From Oidiodendron maius Zn (taxonomy: Eukaryota; Ascomycota; Leotiomycetes; Myxotrichaceae): 64,000 bases of DNA. The stretch lies in contig KN832876.1 of assembly GCA_000827325.1 (NCBI GenBank), positions 992,001-1,056,000 on the forward strand. Reading direction: 5' to 3'. Below, piece by piece: positions 51,832 through 60,263 of this stretch (positions are counted from its first letter, which is position 1; each line of letters starts with the position of its first letter). The translations under genes and the position numbers were made by a program. Under the pieces are notes generated by a model. The model was not told the DNA's origin, made no database searches, and saw only the letters and a program-made list of their open reading frames with translations.

Positions 51832-53408
51832 ATGAAGTTCAATCTCTATTCTCTGGTTGCTGCAATCCTGCTGCCGTCATTTGCTGCAGCACAACTATCT
51901 GGTAGTGTAGGACCGCTAACGACCAGGGCTTCAAAGAGGTCAAAAGTCTGTAATGTCCTCAACTATGGTGGTGTTGCCAGCAAGACGTCCGATATAGGAC
52001 CTCCACTTGCCTCCGCATTTGCAGCGTGTAAGACTGGGGGAACTGGTGAGTTCTTTGAGGTCTCCATATTAAATAAATCATCTGAGAGATCAAGTCTACG
52101 TTCCGCCAGGAGACTATGGCATGTCAACATGGGTTACTTTGGACGGCGGGTCGGCTTGGGCTCTTCAACTTGACGGTATTATCTATCGTGTAGGGTAAAT
52201 GGTCCTGCCCGTAAGGTTTGAATTCCTGCTAAATCGTTTTATTTAAAGCACCGCCGGTGGTAACATGATCTTGGTTGAGAGTACAACCGATTTTGAGCTC
52301 TACAGCAGCACATCCAAAGGCGCGATACAAGGCTATGGATACACTTTTCATGCAGGTAGGTACCAATAGTAATTATTGCCCACATTACTCATACCTCAGT
52401 AGCTGGTACGTACGGACCTCGACTCCTGCGCCTGCAAAGCGTTACCGATTTCTCTGTTCATGACATCGCCTTGGTTGACTGTAAGTTATTTGAATCTTAC
52501 ATTATACCAACCTAACCACTATATAGCCCCTGCATTTCACTTCACCATGGATACGTGCACAAATGGCGAGGTTTACAACATGATTATCAGAGGCGGTAAT
52601 GAAGGTGGCCTTGATGGTATTGACGTCTGGGGAACCAACATCTGGGTCCACGATGTTGAAGTAACAAACAAAGACGAGTGTGTAACAGTGAAAAGCCCTG
52701 CCAGCCATATGCTGATTGAGGATATCTACTGTAACTGGTCTGGTGGATGTGCCATCGGTTCCTTAGGCGCTGACACTGGTAAGTGTTGTGTCATCACTCC
52801 CTCTGAACCACCAGTTGCTGACGAAATTAGCCATATCCAATATCGTATACGAGAACGTCTATACATGGGAGAGCAATCAGATGTTCATGATCAAGTCCAA
52901 CGGCGGCAGCGGTTCCGTTAACAACTGCCAATTTAACAACTTTATCGGCCACAGTAACGCCTATTCCCTTGACATTAACGGTTACTGGTCCGACGAAAGC
53001 CCTGCGGCTGGAAACGGCGTACTCTTTGAGAACCTTTCCTTCAATAACTGGAAAGGCACCTGTGCCGATGGTGCCACCCGAGGCCCGATCAACGTCGTCT
53101 GCCCTTCTGGTGCACCCTGTGTAGACATCACGATCAGTAACTTTGCGATGTGGACAGAGACTGGCAGCTACGAGTACTACAAGTGCGAGAACGCGTGGGG
53201 ATCTGGCGGATGCCTAAAAAGCGGCGGCTCCTCGTCATATGCTATTGTGACGCAGACCGTCACATCTGCTCCGTCCGGGTACTCGGCGCCAACGATGCCC
53301 AGTGATTTGGCGTCTGGCTTTGCCCTCACCGCCAGTATCCCCATTCCTGCTATTCCAACAACATTCTATCCTGGAGCTACTCCAGCGAGCACGCTCCTAG
53401 GAGGCTAA
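51832..53408 (+). CDS. GH28 rhamnogalacturonase (RGase A type), six exons
   Basis: Exons 51832-52045, 52095-52194, 52249-52355, 52403-52480, 52527-52778 and 52831-53408 (introns 46-54 nt) join in phase to 442 aa. It has a signal peptide of about 20 residues ('[14 protein letters not shown]'). The right-handed beta-helix body reads '[20 protein letters not shown]', 'NVLNYGG', '[10 protein letters not shown]', '[20 protein letters not shown]', '[18 protein letters not shown]', then the active-site loops '[19 protein letters not shown]', '[17 protein letters not shown]' and '[13 protein letters not shown]'. The NKDEC and GGCAIGSLG loops are typical of rhamnogalacturonan hydrolase and not of homogalacturonan polygalacturonase. 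The secreted enzyme hydrolyses the GalA-Rha backbone of pectin RG-I. The C-terminus ends in a Ser/Pro-rich tail. Inducible by pectin in relatives; regulation here is not evident. Confidence 0.95.
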
Positions 53409-53645: not shown

Positions 53646-53957
53646 CTATCCCAGCTTGGCCACCTGATCAGCACCTCTCATCTGACGACCAGTAACAAGG
53701 TTCTCAGCATGAGCCCTCCGTGCCCTACTCTCCTCCGTCTCGATAATGCTCGCATTGGAATCACTCCCAGCTGGATTCGCAAATTCATAGGACCTGTACT
53801 CGGTATTCAACCAGGCGGTGCCACGGACCGGGTCAAATCCATCCCAGTCCTCCGTGAAGTAGTGTAAGAAAGCCCCATGCGTCACCACTATGACCTCCTT
53901 ATCTTCGTCATTCTCCTGCGCTATCTCTCGGAGGACTAGCCTTGCAGACCTCGCTCG
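53646..53957 (-). pseudogene. C-terminal half of a split histidine phosphatase (phosphoglycerate-mutase-like) gene
   Basis: The visible C-terminal half encodes 'RARSARLVLREIAQENDEDK', then 'VIVVTHGAFLHYFTEDWDG' (the second catalytic His region of the family) and 'NTEYRSYEFANPAG', ending at a stop at 53646. The matching N-terminal half lies 4.7 kb away at 58652-59080. The half itself is well preserved and its family-typical spacing continues exactly where the other half stops. The phosphatase is interrupted by the insertion (see the inserted-segment entry), so the gene is almost certainly broken as a whole. Confidence 0.85.
53953..53957. repeat. GCTCG, left copy of a possible target-site duplication
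   Basis: The 5-mer GCTCG occurs at the left edge of the segment that splits the phosphatase gene. A second copy lies at 58652-58656 at the right edge. Each is a single short match, so chance or microhomology-mediated insertion is also possible. Confidence 0.45.
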
Positions 53958-54232
53958 CGAGGTCAACCACGGAAGCAAAAGTAATGCTGGATAACGAAGG
54001 TAACGACTGTTGGGCACACCATAGGGAAATTACTATCTAATATCTTCGTTCCCACTATTGCTTCATGAAGACCGCACTAATCCTGCATTGTCGAATAAAG
54101 CCTTGTTCTATTCTCCAGACTACTGAAACCACTTCATTTCCCTTTCTGGCCGTGGCATCTGCGCTCGAGCTATCTTCGAGACTGAAGAAAGTTCGATATT
54201 GTCTAAAGCCTATGTAAAGCTGCTAACAGCCT

Positions 54233-54376
54233 GGGTTGTCACGGTGAAACCTCGCTGCTGTCTGCATCGTCTTTGCAGCAATTGCAACGAGCGTGTTACA
54301 GATTTGGGAGACACCATCCTGAGTGGCTTTAGGAAAGGGTACCAGTACTGATCAAGACCAGATATTTGACATCGCC
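54233..54376 (-). pseudogene. Decayed patatin-like phospholipase fragment
   Basis: In two short frames one can read 'KYLVLISTGT' and then 'DGVSQICNTLVAIAAKTMQT' followed by 'AARFHRDNP'. This resembles the fungal patatin core (LVSIGTG ... TLVAIATETxxTAExFHRD). Patatin domains are a common N-terminal effector of fungal NLRs, so this may be the remnant of a second NLR. It is short and broken and carries no other recognisable domain. Confidence 0.45.
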
Positions 54377-54513
54377 TGTAAACGGCAGAAACACCCATAT
54401 TAGTTGGGCTTGATTTCCCACATCTTAACGCTTAGGGTCATTGCCACTGCATGTAGCTGGTTGCCCCACACACGAATTGGTACTAATTAGTGATAACATT
54501 CCGAGGAGTAGGC

Positions 54514-55521
54514 TTACAAAGGCTGATAAGACCTGGCTACAAGCAGCTGCTCGGTCTCGTCATACTTGCCCTGACTATAGAGTAGGATGGCGAGGTTGTT
54601 CATGCTTGTGAGTGTACTTGGGTGTTCCTTGCCTAGGACCTTCTCCATCAAAGCGAGCGTCTGTCGGTACACAGGCTCGGCCTCGTCATACTTGCCCTGA
54701 TTTCTGAGCAGGCTAGCGAGGTTGTTCATGCTTGCGAGTGTACTTGGGTGTTCCTTGCCCAGGACCTTCTCTATTAAAGCGAGCGTCTGTCGGAACACAG
54801 GCTCGGCCTCGTTATACTTGCCCTGATTACTGAGCAGGCCGGCAAGGTTGTTCATGCTTGTGAGTGTATCTGGGTGTTCCTTGCCCAGGACCTTCTCCAT
54901 CAAAGCGAGCGTCTGTCGGTATACAGGCTCGGCCTCATCATACTTGCCCTGATTTCTGAGCAGGCCGGCGAGGTTGTTCATGCTTGCGAGTGTACTTGGG
55001 TGTTCCTTGCCCAGGACCTTCTCCATCAAAGCGAGAGTCTGTCGGGACACAGGCTCGGCCTCGTCATACTTGCCCTGACTCTCGAGCAGGCTGGCGAGGT
55101 TGTTCATGCTTGTGAGTGTATCTGGGTGTTCCTTGCCCAGGACCTTCTCCATCAAAGCAAGCGTCTGTCGGTACATAGGCTCGGCCTCGTTATACTTGCC
55201 CTGATTTCTAAGCAGGCTGGCGAGGTTGTTCATGCTTGTAAGTGTACTTGGGTGTTCCTTGCCCAGGACCTTCTCCCTCAAAGCGAGCGTCTGTCGGTAC
55301 ATAGGCTCGGCCTCATTGTACTTGCCCTGACTGTCAAGCAGGCTGGCGAGGCTGTTTATGCTTATAAGTGTATCCGGGTGTTCCTTGCCCAGGACCTTCT
55401 CCCTCAAAGCGAGCGTCTGTCGGTACACGGGCTCGGCCTCCTTGTACTTGCCCTGACTCTCGAGTAGGCCGGCGAGGTTGTTCATGCTTATAAGTGTATC
55501 CGGGTGTTCCTTGCCTAGCAA
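54514..55521 (-). repeat. Eight 126-bp TPR-coding tandem repeats
   Basis: Units of 42 codons with high nucleotide similarity; the last unit is truncated. The HPDT and HPST versions largely alternate, which suggests duplication in blocks of two. The residue just after 'LL' is E, D, R, E, R, S, R, Y in order, so one position is clearly hypervariable, and the K/N/D after 'GKY' and the R/M/I before 'EK' also vary. Confidence 0.9.
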
Positions 55522-58459
55522 ACCACTTCTTCCTTCAAATACACCTCGAAACAGCTCTTCGGCCACCTTATATCGACCAAGATTATTTGAAAAGATAGCT
55601 AATCGAAATATAGCATCTAGTACAGTAGCATCCTGCGCACAACCTTGTTGACCGAAATATTCTTGGCTATTCTGAATAACAGCTTGTAGGTGGGAGAAAG
55701 TTATTTGCCTAGCATCGAAAGTCATCTCATGAAAAACTTGGGTCTTGATAAAATGCGATAGGACCAAAGTTGCCTCGATTGTGTAAGCTTGCCGAGACTC
55801 GAAGCTTATTCGCAGTTTCATCCAATCCTGGATAAGTGGATGCAACGAAAATAAAGCCCCTGATCTTTGAATTCTTAAATTTTGAAGTAGTGAAAGATTT
55901 CTCAGTTCCTGCAGAATGTCTTGAAATCTGTATTTATCCCAGGAATTATCTCTAGTGCATAAACTCATCCAGCTACTATTTCGAGAGCTGTAAGGCTCAA
56001 AGAGCGTGTCAGATATCTCATTCCCGTCAAAGAATGCAGTCAAGGAAAGAATATGCCCCTTATCACCACGAACTTTCTCGTCTCCAGCGATTAGATCGAA
56101 CGATAACTCCCAGGTTGTGAATACTGTTAGCTTCGTTTCAATCTCTTGGCAGGCCTTCAGTTTTCGTTTGTACTCCCATAGCCCGGGCGTCTCGTTGAGC
56201 ACCTCTTCCCGGCGCTTGTCATAATGCTCTAAGAAGAGGTCCAAGTCGAGAGTACGTGCTAGAATATATGCCCCAGCTTGATCGATGGCAAGCGCATGAA
56301 ATCCAAGTCGCCTTACGATTTTCTGAGCTTCTTGTAGTGTTGTGTCACTCCTTATAGTATCACTCCTTCGAAAGAGTAGCTCCAGTGCCTCTTCATTAGA
56401 CATGGTTGATACATCGATAGAGCGACTAAGGCCTTTTGCTGCTCCATCTCTGCTAGTAATGAGGACCGACCCGTAATTGCTTCGTGGGAAATACTCTTTG
56501 ATGTTCTTGTTACCAAACGAGTGTAGATCGTCGAAATTATCGAAAACAAGCAGCCATGGTTCCCGCCATGTGCTTATGGTGGTTAACACATATCGGACGT
56601 TTCCTTCTACATCCGCGACATCAAAACTTGGCTTTAACAATTCTCGTGCAAGTGCAGTAAGGCCCTGTTCAATTGTTGTTGGAGACATCGCATCAATCCA
56701 GAATATAGCCGTGTAGGATTCATCATTTTCACATTGTTGACAGTACTCAAGAGCAAGCTGTGACTTCCCACACCCGCCCATTCCAAGCAAAACAAAAATA
56801 GTAGGCATAGCAGTGGTTCGTGCTGCTTGGAAATGTTTCCGGATCTCATTCTGGGGATGTGCACGTGGTACAAAGTGATTCACCCTGTATGATGGATATA
56901 TAAAGCGACATGGAACATGGTCGGAACATGGAACCGCTCCATCAGTGACTATGAAATGGTGTTAGCGGTCAAATATCGGATGCTATAGGTATAGTAATCC
57001 ATAGTACTGGAGGCTGTAGAGACTACAAACACGGACTTTGGTACAATATAAGGGGAGCCACGTTACTGAGATAGAGAGAACCCTTCTACATACAAAATCT
57101 GTCAGAGATCACCTTCTTCGCATCTTGCTCAAATTGCTTCAGATATCTGATAGTCGTCTTATAGGTATCGGCGTGTCGACTATCGAGTTTCACAATCTGC
57201 GAGTGGTCTGCAGAGACGGGAATCTTAGTCTCTACGCTGTCAGGGAGTTGAAGGAGAGCTGAGTCAGAGTCGACAGCTGTTATATATACTCCCGTTCGGC
57301 CCCAAAGGCCCGTCTTCGGATTCTAGGCTGTATTAGTTGGGCCATAATATGAGCAGATTGAGACATCAAACCATTTCTAGTCGCCTAGTTTGCTGCGTCT
57401 CATAAAAGCTGATGATCTTCAGATCTCGTACCAGATTCTTAAAGTTGGCGAGCTGATATACTAATAGATTGGACTTGCGTCGAATCTCCTCGAGGAGCTG
57501 TCCCCGTGGGTGGTCCTCTCCTGCTAGCATCTGCTGGATATCATCGATAACAAGACCCTTGTGTGGAGTAGCAAAGAACAAGATGCCATAGGTCGCTTTA
57601 TGTAGAGCTGCGATTGCTGCATGGTCACGTTCATCTGTCTGTGCTGCTGTGATTAGGCACTAGGACCATCAGTATTCTTATCTTAATCCAGGCCAACCAT
57701 GCCCTCATCGCCTACGTACATGAGCTAGTATGATGCCCCCAAAGCTATGCGCGATAAAGAATAGCGGCCTCTCTCGAAGCTAGTGGTATATTAGCAGGAT
57801 AGCTGACTACGTAGATCCATTACTACCTACCTCCTTTGTATACCGGATCCTCTTGATCCCCTCTAAGAACTCCCGTCCATAATCCATGATCGTGTCGATA
57901 CCGTGGCTCGAGAGCTTCGAGTTGTAGCCGTAGGTCATCGTTCGACAGTTGGGGAGATCTTTCGAGAGGAAGTCGCGGAGCCACATGCGCCCTAGATTGC
58001 CCTTTCCCCTCCACGACCCATACGCATGTCCGTCCAGGCCCGTGATGGCAATGATGCTATTGACCAATATTAGTATCGCAGCTGCAGAGAGTGGCAGAGG
58101 TCGTACTCAGCCGTGACTGGATTATTAGGGTCCGTTGGATACAGCTGGGTGAAGCCGAAGAAGTGGCGGTCAAAGTTGATGTCCTCACCCCCCATCTCAA
58201 CTTGCCAATCCCCCAGAGGAGTGTGGTCGAGCTGCGATAGGAAGTCTGGATTGCCGCCTTTGAACTCCACCAACGCGCTTGAGGTTGGGCTTTCGTCGCA
58301 TGATGGGATGCATATCACACTCACCTCTACTCGCGGTCGTTCATCATCCGTTAGGAGATCGCGGATCGTCTGGGTCAAGGTTGATTTGACGTCTAGCTCA
58401 GCCTTGTCCACGGGAAGGCCGGTCACTCGGAATACCGTTGATCGAGGACTGCTCGCCAT
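54514..58459 (-). CDS. STAND/NLR protein: SesB-like hydrolase, NB-ARC, eight TPR units (six exons)
   Basis: Exons (transcript order) 58107-58459, 57831-58056, 57720-57779, 57372-57659, 57094-57322 and 54514-56948 join in phase to 1196 aa with introns of 50, 51, 60, 49 and 145 nt. N-terminal part: about 117 variable residues, then a SesB-like alpha/beta hydrolase '[15 protein letters not shown]' ... '[17 protein letters not shown]' with the nucleophile Ser205 in AHSFGG, and '[11 protein letters not shown]'. Then an NB-ARC: P-loop '[11 protein letters not shown]' (from about residue 441), Walker B '[11 protein letters not shown]', 'GSVLITSRD' and '[11 protein letters not shown]'. From about residue 862 come eight 42-residue TPR units, each of the form 'LGKEHPxTLxSMNNLAxLL' plus 'xxQGKYxEAEPxxRQTLALx', the last one ending early. 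The layout is that of fungal NLR immune or incompatibility sensors, in which ligand binding to the repeats releases the effector domain. Confidence 0.93.
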
Positions 58460-58651
58460 GTTAGCGCGCCAGATAGTTCATGTATGAGGCTGCTAGACAG
58501 GATGTTTGAGTGGCGAAGCTGTCGTGGTAGAGGAAGAGACATATATTCGTTGTAAAATGGCGTTCGGCGCGTAGAGCCTTGCTAAATCTCAGCCGCAACC
58601 TTGGGATAAACTATTATGACACCGGTGAGAAAGGGAGTGACATTTAAGCCA

Positions 58652-58656
58652 GCTCG
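58652..58656. repeat. GCTCG, right copy of a possible target-site duplication
   Basis: Same 5-mer as at 53953-53957. Between it and the phosphatase N-terminal half the reading frame is off by one base relative to the C-terminal half, which may reflect later decay. Confidence 0.45.
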
Positions 58657-59080
58657 TCGCCTCGATTGCAGTGCTGTTGGGGCTCCATCGGCCTGTCTTG
58701 ATGTTCCACCCTTCGTGCACGCGCGACAGGTCCACGGTGCCTGCAAATTGGCCTTCCCCAAACTCAGCCTGCAGCACTGATGGCTCCGAACCAGTGTCAC
58801 TCGGCTGATTGCTGTTTTCTTGCAGCTCGGGAACCGCAAGGACGGTCAGACCTCGAGCGACGGCCGAGGGGAACGAGAGCAAGCAAGTATACAGGGTGCG
58901 GCGGAGGGGCGAGGCCACTAGGTGCGTAATCTTGTCAGAAGATGGAAATGTCGTGGCAAGAGCGCTACACTGGGCTACGCCTAGCGGGGTCAGGTCTGGG
59001 TCGGGGAGCTTCTCGTTGGCGACGCTGAGATTGTGGTAACCCTGGGCATGGCGAACGAGAGTTATAATAGTCTTGCCCAT
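58652..59080 (-). pseudogene. N-terminal half of the split histidine phosphatase gene
   Basis: From ATG 59080: 'MGKTIITLVRHAQGYHNLSV' (the RHA/RHG catalytic His motif at residues 10-12), 'DPDLTPLGVAQCSAL', 'HLVASPLRRTLYTCLLSF' and 'VDLSRVHEGWNIKTGRWSPN', running into 'STAIEA' at the insertion edge. This is the usual first half of a fungal phosphoglycerate-mutase-like phosphatase; the missing second half is found intact at 53646-53957. The product would lack the second catalytic region unless transcripts bypass the insertion, which seems unlikely. Confidence 0.85.
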
Positions 59081-60263
59081 TGCACTTTCTTGAGTCTTCG
59101 ATACCAATGTCAAGGTGAACGGCGTTATATCTATATGGCGGGGTCTTTGCCTCAACAGTGGGGTCAATGACTCAAATTCCCGGTGGAGGGGGTAATAAAA
59201 ACAAAAATATCAAGGACAACAAGAGTAGAGAGTGGGAAAGGACAAGAAATTTAGGAGAAGAGCAAGATAAAGAGAGTGAGAGTGACAGATGAGAAAGAGA
59301 AAAATACCGCAAACCAACACAGCGCGACGCAGCGACTCTAACTGATTATGCCGGACACGGGCCAAATCGCGAGAATCTTGTGGTGGCCACCAAGAATGCT
59401 ACAGGAAAATTTAATGTTGCAAACAGGGCAAATGCTTACCTAATCGCGCCCATATCGTTTCGGGGGCATCCGTGACCAAGGGCATCATCAAGTTGATATA
59501 TATACGCGCATTTTGTCACTCTGGGAGAAATATTTCAATAGGCCACTATTTAATTAGTCCCAGCAATGTAGGTTGATACTTAGAGAGAGAAGCTATTGGC
59601 TATACTGGAGTCATCGCTTGACAAAAGACTCGGACGACCGGAGGTCGCCGATGATATTGAGCTTGTGCAGGCCATAGCTCCTGCGGCTGGGCTCTTGGAC
59701 CTGAGCTCCCTTCCCCTACAAGTACATAGATGATTCTCTGCCCGGGTGTTTGTTATGCAGTTTATTATGGCAACTGAGTATGGTACTGTATCCTTCATCC
59801 ATTGTAAGTAGAGCGTTGTCTCAAGACTCGCGTCCAGCATTCATCGTCACAATACGATGATACTAGATTCTGAAATACATGTGAACCTTGCGCGTCTACC
59901 TCCAGGATGATAGTTCACGCTCTAAGATGAGGTGGGAAGTTCTGCCGAGGAGCAAGATACCGGAACTTAAATAGGGAAAGAGAGACGTTGGTGACGAATT
60001 GTGTTCCGCCTGATATTTTATATACTTTATACTTGGACTACTCTCGCAGTCCTTTACTGCCTTCATAGGCCAAATGACAGATGCAAGACACACTCAATAC
60101 TGTGTATACACTTGAATACATGCCAAAGAACTCCTCTGCTTCCTGAAAATTCTACCATAGCTGCTGAACACTAGCCACGGACCAGTTAGACGCCACCTAG
60201 AGCCCCAGTAACTCTCCCAGTCCCGTATGCCGGTGACTCAATCCACCAGCTGTACAAAGGCCC
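59081..60263. other. Intergenic region
   Basis: About 1.2 kb between the interrupted phosphatase start and the end of the HECT gene (both on minus). Two short open stretches have no recognisable domain. The part next to the phosphatase start is A-rich on plus. Confidence 0.5.

What the first reader, a model, noticed from the sequence alone, without database searches (positions are those of the whole stretch)
53646..59080. An NLR immune-type gene has split a histidine phosphatase gene with almost no loss
Two pieces of one phosphoglycerate-mutase-like gene, on the same strand, are separated by 4.7 kb. The N-terminal half stops at 'STAIEA' and the C-terminal half starts at 'RARSARLVLRE', which fits together without a gap compared with the family. 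The segment between them carries a complete-looking NLR gene, and the same 5-mer GCTCG stands at both edges. If real, this is a recent-looking insertion of a whole NLR locus, with the same orientation as its host gene. No transposase or LTR was seen, so the vehicle is unknown.
Basis: partly seen in the sequence, partly recalled or inferred. Interest (0 to 1): 0.8.

Follow-up and report, generated by a model that had tools for sequence, protein, structure and literature searches.

The report
Fungal NLR gene inside a phosphatase
In a fungal genome, a complete-looking immune-receptor-type gene sits inside, and has very probably broken, an ordinary phosphatase gene; the event looks fairly recent, but how the gene got there is unknown.

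Summary
Two parts of one histidine-phosphatase gene lie on the minus strand (59080-58658 and 53957-53646), separated by 4,700 bp. Joined, they read in frame as 244 aa with one Pfam PF00300 match of 59.5 bits (37.9 and 20.0 apart), gap-free across the junction in one of two paralogues that span it. The insert holds an open 1,196-aa NLR model in six exons: probable sesB-like hydrolase, NB-ARC, TPR, a common fungal architecture (PMC12258605, passages). Neither phosphatase part has a stop or frameshift, so if neutral the split is recent (roughly 5% divergence or less).

I found no terminal repeats, transposase, captain on this contig, or retrocopy signs. No donor was found; the longest non-self match above 80% is 317 bp at 87%. 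No other fungal genome was available, so the empty site was not seen.

Best reading: a gene-disrupting, DNA-based insertion of an NLR, perhaps by break repair; a modestly surprising instance of known kinds.

The parts
58658..59080 (-). N-terminal part of a histidine-phosphatase (phosphoglycerate-mutase-like) gene, 141 codons, ATG to ...STAIEA; holds RHAQG, SPLRR and PELQE (catalytic roles recalled)
53646..53957 (-). C-terminal part of the same gene, 103 codons + TAG, RARSARLVLRE... to ...VAKLG; holds the second catalytic His, VTHGAFLH (role recalled); its only Met codon is 11 residues from its end
53958..58657 (-). Inserted segment, 4,700 bp, placed by the join that keeps the host frame (GCG|CGA); CG is shared at the junction, so the edge is ambiguous by 2 bp
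54514..58459 (-). NLR gene, model of six exons: 58459-58107, 58056-57831, 57779-57720, 57659-57372, 57322-57094, 56948-54514; 1,196 aa; GT-AG introns chosen by frame, not by RNA data
57372..58056 (-). Probable sesB-like alpha/beta-hydrolase domain of the NLR (exons 2-4; AHSFGG motif, role recalled); DUF676 19.0 bits, under the 20.3 cut-off
56344..56805 (-). NB-ARC domain (PF00931, 32.3 bits, cut-off 23.5; residues 53-206 of the last open frame); Walker [10 protein letters not shown] (motif recalled)
54628..55509 (-). Seven full 126-bp (42-aa) TPR units, averaging 85% aa and 89% DNA identity to each other; repeat similarity runs on to either side
58652..58656 (+).
53953..53957 (+).
53948..53965 (-). 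Palindrome GACCTCGC-GA-GCGAGGTC across the right junction; arms of 8 or more at 0.3% of 20,000 random sites of local GC 0.55-0.70
53988..54055 (-). 68 bp, 91% identical to C1:73250-73317, with near-inverted ends: MITE-like scrap 30 bp inside the right edge

Best explanation
A histidine-phosphatase gene of a filamentous fungus, uninterrupted over the part seen here, was broken by a 4,700-bp DNA segment that carries one NLR gene (probable sesB-like hydrolase, NB-ARC, TPR) with 198 bp of upstream and 556 bp of downstream sequence. SHOWN: the two halves fit in frame, the NLR has an open gene model with introns, the phosphatase motifs (roles recalled) are divided between the halves, and searches of this assembly found no intact copy of the phosphatase and no close donor of the NLR. 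INFERRED: the phosphatase is dead. The segment came in by a DNA-based, non-transposon route, most simply capture of a fragment during double-strand-break repair with 0-2 bp of microhomology, from a locus now lost or from another strain or species. The NLR keeps working as a receptor of the usual fungal kind: the TPR array senses, NB-ARC oligomerises, and the lipase-like N-terminus is the effector, in allorecognition or antimicrobial cell death. Because the segment brings only 198 bp in front of the NLR start codon, its transcription may rely partly on the host gene's promoter, which points the same way.
For: Joined halves: one PF00300 match of 59.5 bits over profile 1-167 against 37.9 and 20.0 bits apart. 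Gap-free alignment across the junction with paralogue L042. The flank join reads ...STAIEARARSARLVLRE.... NLR model 1,196 aa, five introns, no internal stop. Own-genome DNA search: 32 matches including self; 23 of the 31 others are TPR-region similarity at 64-73%, and the other 8 are pieces of 68-433 bp at 72-91%, the longest above 80% being 317 bp at 87% (that search skips very common words and scores only the best candidates). A 231-bp query over the left edge matches only itself; a 306-bp query over the right edge matches itself and 68 bp on C1. No terminal inverted or direct similarity above shuffles at 40, 100 and 190 bp. No stop or frameshift in 423 + 312 nt of host sequence; with 10% indels among mutations the chance of that is 0.21 at 2% divergence, 0.10 at 3% and 0.02 at 5%.
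Against: The empty site was not seen in any relative. The break-repair route rests on the absence of other signatures plus a 2-bp match. A recent insertion ought to have a nearly identical source and none was found, so an extra assumption is needed: donor lost, polymorphic or foreign. The second paralogue (L041) has a one-residue gap two residues from the junction. The palindrome at the right edge (0.3% by chance) is unexplained. No RNA data support the NLR gene model, and the hydrolase domain is below Pfam's cut-offs.
Confidence: 0.55

Rival explanations
1. The NLR was carried in by a DNA transposon or Starship-type element whose ends or recombinase have been lost, leaving GCTCG as a target-site or direct repeat; the host gene either was already out of frame or the left edge changed by one base later.
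For: GCTCG at both edges; the genome has 22 DUF3435 (captain-family) matches; one NLR is reported as Starship cargo, and Starships are flanked by direct repeats (PMC12134995, passages); a MITE-like scrap lies 30 bp inside the right edge.
Against: 0 of the 22 DUF3435 matches are on contig C7; the insert is 4.7 kb, while Starships are given as 15 to about 700 kb; no terminal repeats; no transposase over cut-off in the 4 insert open frames scanned (for the largest, 25 of 42 listed families were shown; one sub-threshold TniB hit, 14.9 bits, lies in exon 4); the 5-mer is near chance level (2.4%) and one base out of register with the reading frame.
Confidence: 0.2
2. The split is old and the two parts are kept by selection as two separate genes or as a complementing pair.
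For: Both parts are free of stops; no close donor was found.
Against: The only Met codon of the C part is 11 residues from its end; the second catalytic His is apart from the other motifs (roles recalled); Pfam and both paralogues have the halves in one polypeptide.
Confidence: 0.07
3. The NLR lies in a giant intron of a still-working phosphatase (nested gene).
For: Same strand; frame kept across the gap.
Against: The frame-keeping edges are ACGAGC...CCTCG, not GT...AG; 4.7 kb is far beyond the 49-145 bp introns of the NLR model; reading through the left edge meets a stop after 22 codons of insert.
Confidence: 0.03
4. Assembly chimera: two unrelated sequences were joined by error.
For: The NLR has 126-bp repeats of about 89% identity, which can mislead assemblers; no reads are available.
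Against: Two independent wrong joins would have to fall at matching codons of one gene; the contig is 2.0 Mb long; no other place in the assembly matches across either junction.
Confidence: 0.04

Closest known systems
Fungal NLRs of the sesB-like / NB-ARC / TPR architecture (e.g. Podospora anserina Pa_2_10340, as listed in PMC4986451, passages)
   Same: Probable N-terminal lipase-like domain, NB-ARC, internally similar TPR array
   Different: Sits inside another gene's coding sequence; nothing unusual in the protein itself was found
Histidine phosphatase superfamily branch 1 (PF00300, phosphoglycerate-mutase-like)
   Same: Joined halves match the profile in one stretch and carry the catalytic motifs (recalled)
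   Different: Split by 4,700 bp; no intact copy found in this assembly
Starship cargo-carrying elements (DUF3435 captain)
   Same: Can carry NLR genes and are flanked by direct repeats (PMC12134995, passages)
   Different: No captain match on this contig; 4.7 kb is below the stated size range; no terminal repeats
Gene-disrupting DNA insertions by non-homologous repair (recalled as a general class; numts, PMC2820518, search listing only)
   Same: Clean insertion with 0-2 bp microhomology, no terminal repeats, introns kept
   Different: Source sequence not identified, so the class is assigned by exclusion

Membership tests
Fungal NLR (sesB-like/NB-ARC/TPR) | NB-ARC or NACHT nucleotide-binding domain | tested here: met
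   PF00931 32.3 bits, cut-off 23.5
Fungal NLR (sesB-like/NB-ARC/TPR) | C-terminal superstructure-forming repeats (TPR) | tested here: met
   TPR_12 451 bits, TPR_10 409 bits
Fungal NLR (sesB-like/NB-ARC/TPR) | N-terminal sesB-like (alpha/beta hydrolase) domain | tested here: inconclusive
   DUF676 19.0 bits (cut-off 20.3), Abhydrolase_6 17.7 (26.3), Hydrolase_4 13.8 (27.0), all under cut-off; no sesB HMM was used
Fungal NLR (sesB-like/NB-ARC/TPR) | High internal repeat conservation (>85% over 100 aa; a feature of some members only, PMC4986451 passages) | tested here: inconclusive
   7 full units: mean 85.1% aa, range 76-98%
Fungal NLR (sesB-like/NB-ARC/TPR) | Triggers non-self recognition or cell death | not testable with these tools
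   needs genetics
His phosphatase branch 1 | Match to PF00300 over the cut-off | tested here: met
   joined protein 59.5 bits; N part alone 37.9 (met), C part alone 20.0 (not met; cut-off 21.7)
His phosphatase branch 1 | Encoded by one intact gene in this genome | tested here: not met
   only the two halves at this locus, plus two paralogues at 40% and 36%
Starship | DUF3435 captain in or near the element | tested here: not met
   0 of 22 matches on C7
Starship | Size of 15 kb or more | tested here: not met
   4,700 bp; size range from PMC12134995
TIR DNA transposon | Terminal inverted repeats at the edges | tested here: not met
   ends no more alike than shuffles; none at the edges in the repeat finder
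TIR DNA transposon | Target-site duplication | tested here: inconclusive
   GCTCG at both edges, 2.4% by chance, one base out of frame register
Retrocopy | Introns lost, poly-A tract | tested here: not met
   five introns in the model; no poly-A in the last 300 bp

The most novel reading that the evidence does not exclude
The locus is a two-state (idiomorph-like) polymorphism: strains carry either the intact phosphatase or the NLR in its place, and the exclusion itself matters because the phosphatase or its product is what the NLR senses or would be harmful with it.
Probability: 0.06. Interest if true: 0.75.

Novelty: new member of a known kind. Interest (0 to 1): 0.36.

Why it matters
Fungal NLR repertoires vary greatly, but the papers whose passages I saw do not describe how a single NLR gene moves to a new place. 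An NLR locus with both edges placed to within a few bases, because the host coding frame marks the empty site, would let strain comparisons show directly the size of the moved unit, the repair or transposition signature and the cost to the host gene. It is one instance, without the sister-genome comparison that would settle it.

Tried and rejected
Target-site duplication: GCTCG is real but near chance level and out of frame register. Terminal inverted or direct repeats: no excess over shuffles at 40, 100 or 190 bp. Starship: no captain match on C7. Retrocopy: introns kept. Nested-intron reading: edges are not GT-AG. RIP decay: no consistent RIP signal (TpA/ApT 0.68-1.08 and (CpA+TpG)/(ApC+GpT) 1.14-1.28 over the halves and insert segments, whose edges in that script were up to 8 bp off the final ones; thresholds recalled). 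Telomere test: an exact four-unit TTAGGG pattern found no match in the assembly, so contig ends cannot be called telomeres. External relatives: scans of genome contigs and viral contigs with the joined phosphatase matched 61 and 8 stretches by pattern, none confirmed; both are prokaryote or viral collections. PDB: 10 weak matches for the joined phosphatase at E <= 1, best 0.0016. tRNA and Rfam in the whole window: none (ARAGORN ran with the bacterial code). A bacterial-type promoter/terminator scan of 58400-59400 found nothing and is not suited to fungi. Literature: searches with NLR/fungi/transposable element (20 of 82 listed), NLR/SesB/TPR (15 of 42), phosphoglycerate mutase or heterokaryon incompatibility with NLR (15 of 676), idiomorph/NACHT (3 of 3), NLR/presence-absence/disrupt (1 of 1) and break repair/microhomology (6 of 6): no listed title or abstract start describes an NLR inserted into a gene. 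These were listings; of the papers I opened passages of three only (PMC12258605, PMC4986451, PMC12134995).
Full report
WHERE IT IS. The window is C7:992001-1056000 of a 45.9-Mb assembly in 58 contigs. It is a eukaryote, by inference a filamentous ascomycete: DUF3435 captain-family domains occur (22 matches; their restriction to such fungi is from PMC12134995 passages and recall), an open frame at 50444-49299 is CCT-epsilon, and a HECT ubiquitin-ligase frame lies at 61190-60264. The species is unknown to me. The finding sits between a GH28 frame (52767-53408) and the HECT frame, near the middle of a 2.0-Mb contig.

THE OBSERVATION. On the minus strand the N part of a phosphoglycerate-mutase-like gene runs from 59080 to 58658 and the C part from 53957 to 53646. 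PF00300 matches the N part over profile 1-79 at 37.9 bits and the C part over 126-167 at 20.0 bits, the latter just below the cut-off of 21.7. Joined, the protein of 244 aa gives one match over profile 1-167 at 59.5 bits. Two paralogues were found in the genome, at 40% and 36% identity. L042 aligns with no gap for 26 residues before and 10 after the junction. L041 also spans the junction but has a one-residue gap two residues before it and gaps of 5 and 6 residues farther out. So the halves belong to one protein, and at most about a residue is in doubt at the join. No intact copy of this gene was found in the assembly.

THE EDGES. The join that keeps the frame is GCG|CGA, which places the insert at 58657-53958, 4,700 bp. 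Only CG is shared across that join. A 5-bp duplication would therefore imply an empty site one base out of frame. In 200,000 random site pairs from 46-64 kb with local GC 0.55-0.70 (real edges 0.53 and 0.67) a shared 5-mer with at most one base of offset appeared in 2.4%, and with no offset in 0.9%. It is not persuasive. Separately, a palindrome with 8-bp arms and a 2-bp centre straddles the right junction; arms this long appear at 0.3% of 20,000 such sites. I looked at several features, so this is a lead and not a result. The two ends of the insert are no more alike, directly or inverted, than shuffles.

THE INSERT. One gene fills it. A model with six exons and GT-AG introns of 49-145 bp gives 1,196 aa without an internal stop; of the 16 combinations tried for introns 4 and 5 it was the only one open to the end, introns 1-3 having been set by hand. 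The N-terminal 411 aa reach DUF676 at 19.0 bits, under its cut-off, with an AHSFGG motif (role recalled), which fits the sesB-like hydrolase class but does not prove it. NB-ARC scores 32.3 bits and TPR_12 451 bits. Seven full TPR units average 85% identity. In Sordariales 287 sesB-like NLRs have NB-ARC, and NB-ARC goes most often with TPR (PMC12258605, passages); a sesB-like/NB-ARC/TPR gene is listed for Podospora anserina (PMC4986451, passages). The protein is ordinary. The insert has 198 bp before the start codon and 556 bp after the stop.

THE SOURCE. Searching the genome with the insert DNA gave 32 matches including itself: 23 lie in the TPR region at 64-73%, and 8 are other pieces of 68-433 bp at 72-91%, the longest above 80% being 317 bp at 87% (exon 1) on C13 (the search skips very common words and scores only the best candidates). 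The nearest in-genome relatives are mostly broken: the C13 exon-1 copy has 3 stops and lies 7.7 kb from a contig end; an NB-ARC piece on C4 at 57% has 4 stops and lies 70 kb from an end; a TPR-end plus 3'-flank piece on C21 (77% over 303 bp, 87% over 124 bp) lies 21 kb from an end, with no NB-ARC match beside it. A fuller relative on C5 shares the N-terminus (50-79% by piece, one piece with a stop) but has a different NB-ARC (30%), and is not near a contig end. Contig ends could not be shown to be telomeres. A 231-bp query over the left edge has no second copy, and a 306-bp query over the right edge has none apart from 68 bp at 91% on C1:73250-73317. This stretch has near-inverted ends and looks like a tiny MITE; the strict pattern occurs twice in the genome.

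AGE. Neither host part has a stop or frameshift. In a simulation with 10% indels, the chance of staying clean is 0.46 at 1% divergence, 0.21 at 2%, 0.10 at 3% and 0.02 at 5%; with 20% indels it is 0.06 at 2%, and with 5% indels 0.08 at 5%. If neutral, the split is younger than roughly 2-5% divergence. Against that, a young insertion should have a near-identical source and none was found, so the donor was lost, is polymorphic, or is foreign; alternatively the halves are not neutral.

HOW IT MOST LIKELY CAME ABOUT AND WORKS. By exclusion I favour a DNA-based capture during break repair: introns are kept, there are no terminal repeats, no transposase over cut-off in the 4 insert open frames scanned (where 25 of 42 families were shown for the largest), no captain match on this contig and 0-2 bp of shared sequence. 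This step is inferred. The effect on the host gene is clearer: the catalytic motifs (recalled) are divided between two pieces, and the only Met codon of the C piece is 11 residues from its end, so the phosphatase is very probably null. The NLR should act as other fungal NLRs do (inferred from architecture).

WHAT COULD NOT BE DONE. No other fungal genome could be searched. One scan each of prokaryote genomes and viral contigs confirmed no relative. The decisive empty-site comparison remains open. I therefore rate the insertion itself as very likely (about 0.85), the break-repair route as the leading guess, and the whole as a modestly interesting instance of known kinds.

Noticed in passing
53948-53965: Palindrome GACCTCGC-GA-GCGAGGTC across the right junction; chance about 0.3% at GC-matched sites; could be a repair scar or coincidence.
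   Followed up: partly
53988-54055 and C1:73250-73317 (L043 4951-5018): 68-bp MITE-like stretch with near-inverted ends, 91% identical; only two copies found with the strict pattern.
   Followed up: partly
L045 4535-5116, L046 4845-5277, L044 4698-5273: Broken relatives of different parts of this NLR (exon 1, NB-ARC, TPR end plus 3' flank) lie 8-70 kb from contig ends, while the open gene is mid-contig.
   Followed up: partly
C5:1746380-1749100 (L047): An NLR sharing this gene's N-terminal domain (50-79% by piece) but with a different NB-ARC domain (30%): likely domain shuffling.
   Followed up: no
whole genome G000: 76 matches to this gene's NB-ARC region at E <= 1e-5, self included, a lower bound: an NLR-rich fungus.
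   Followed up: no
whole genome G000: 22 DUF3435 (Starship captain family) matches, 14 of them with stops inside, none on contig C7.
   Followed up: no
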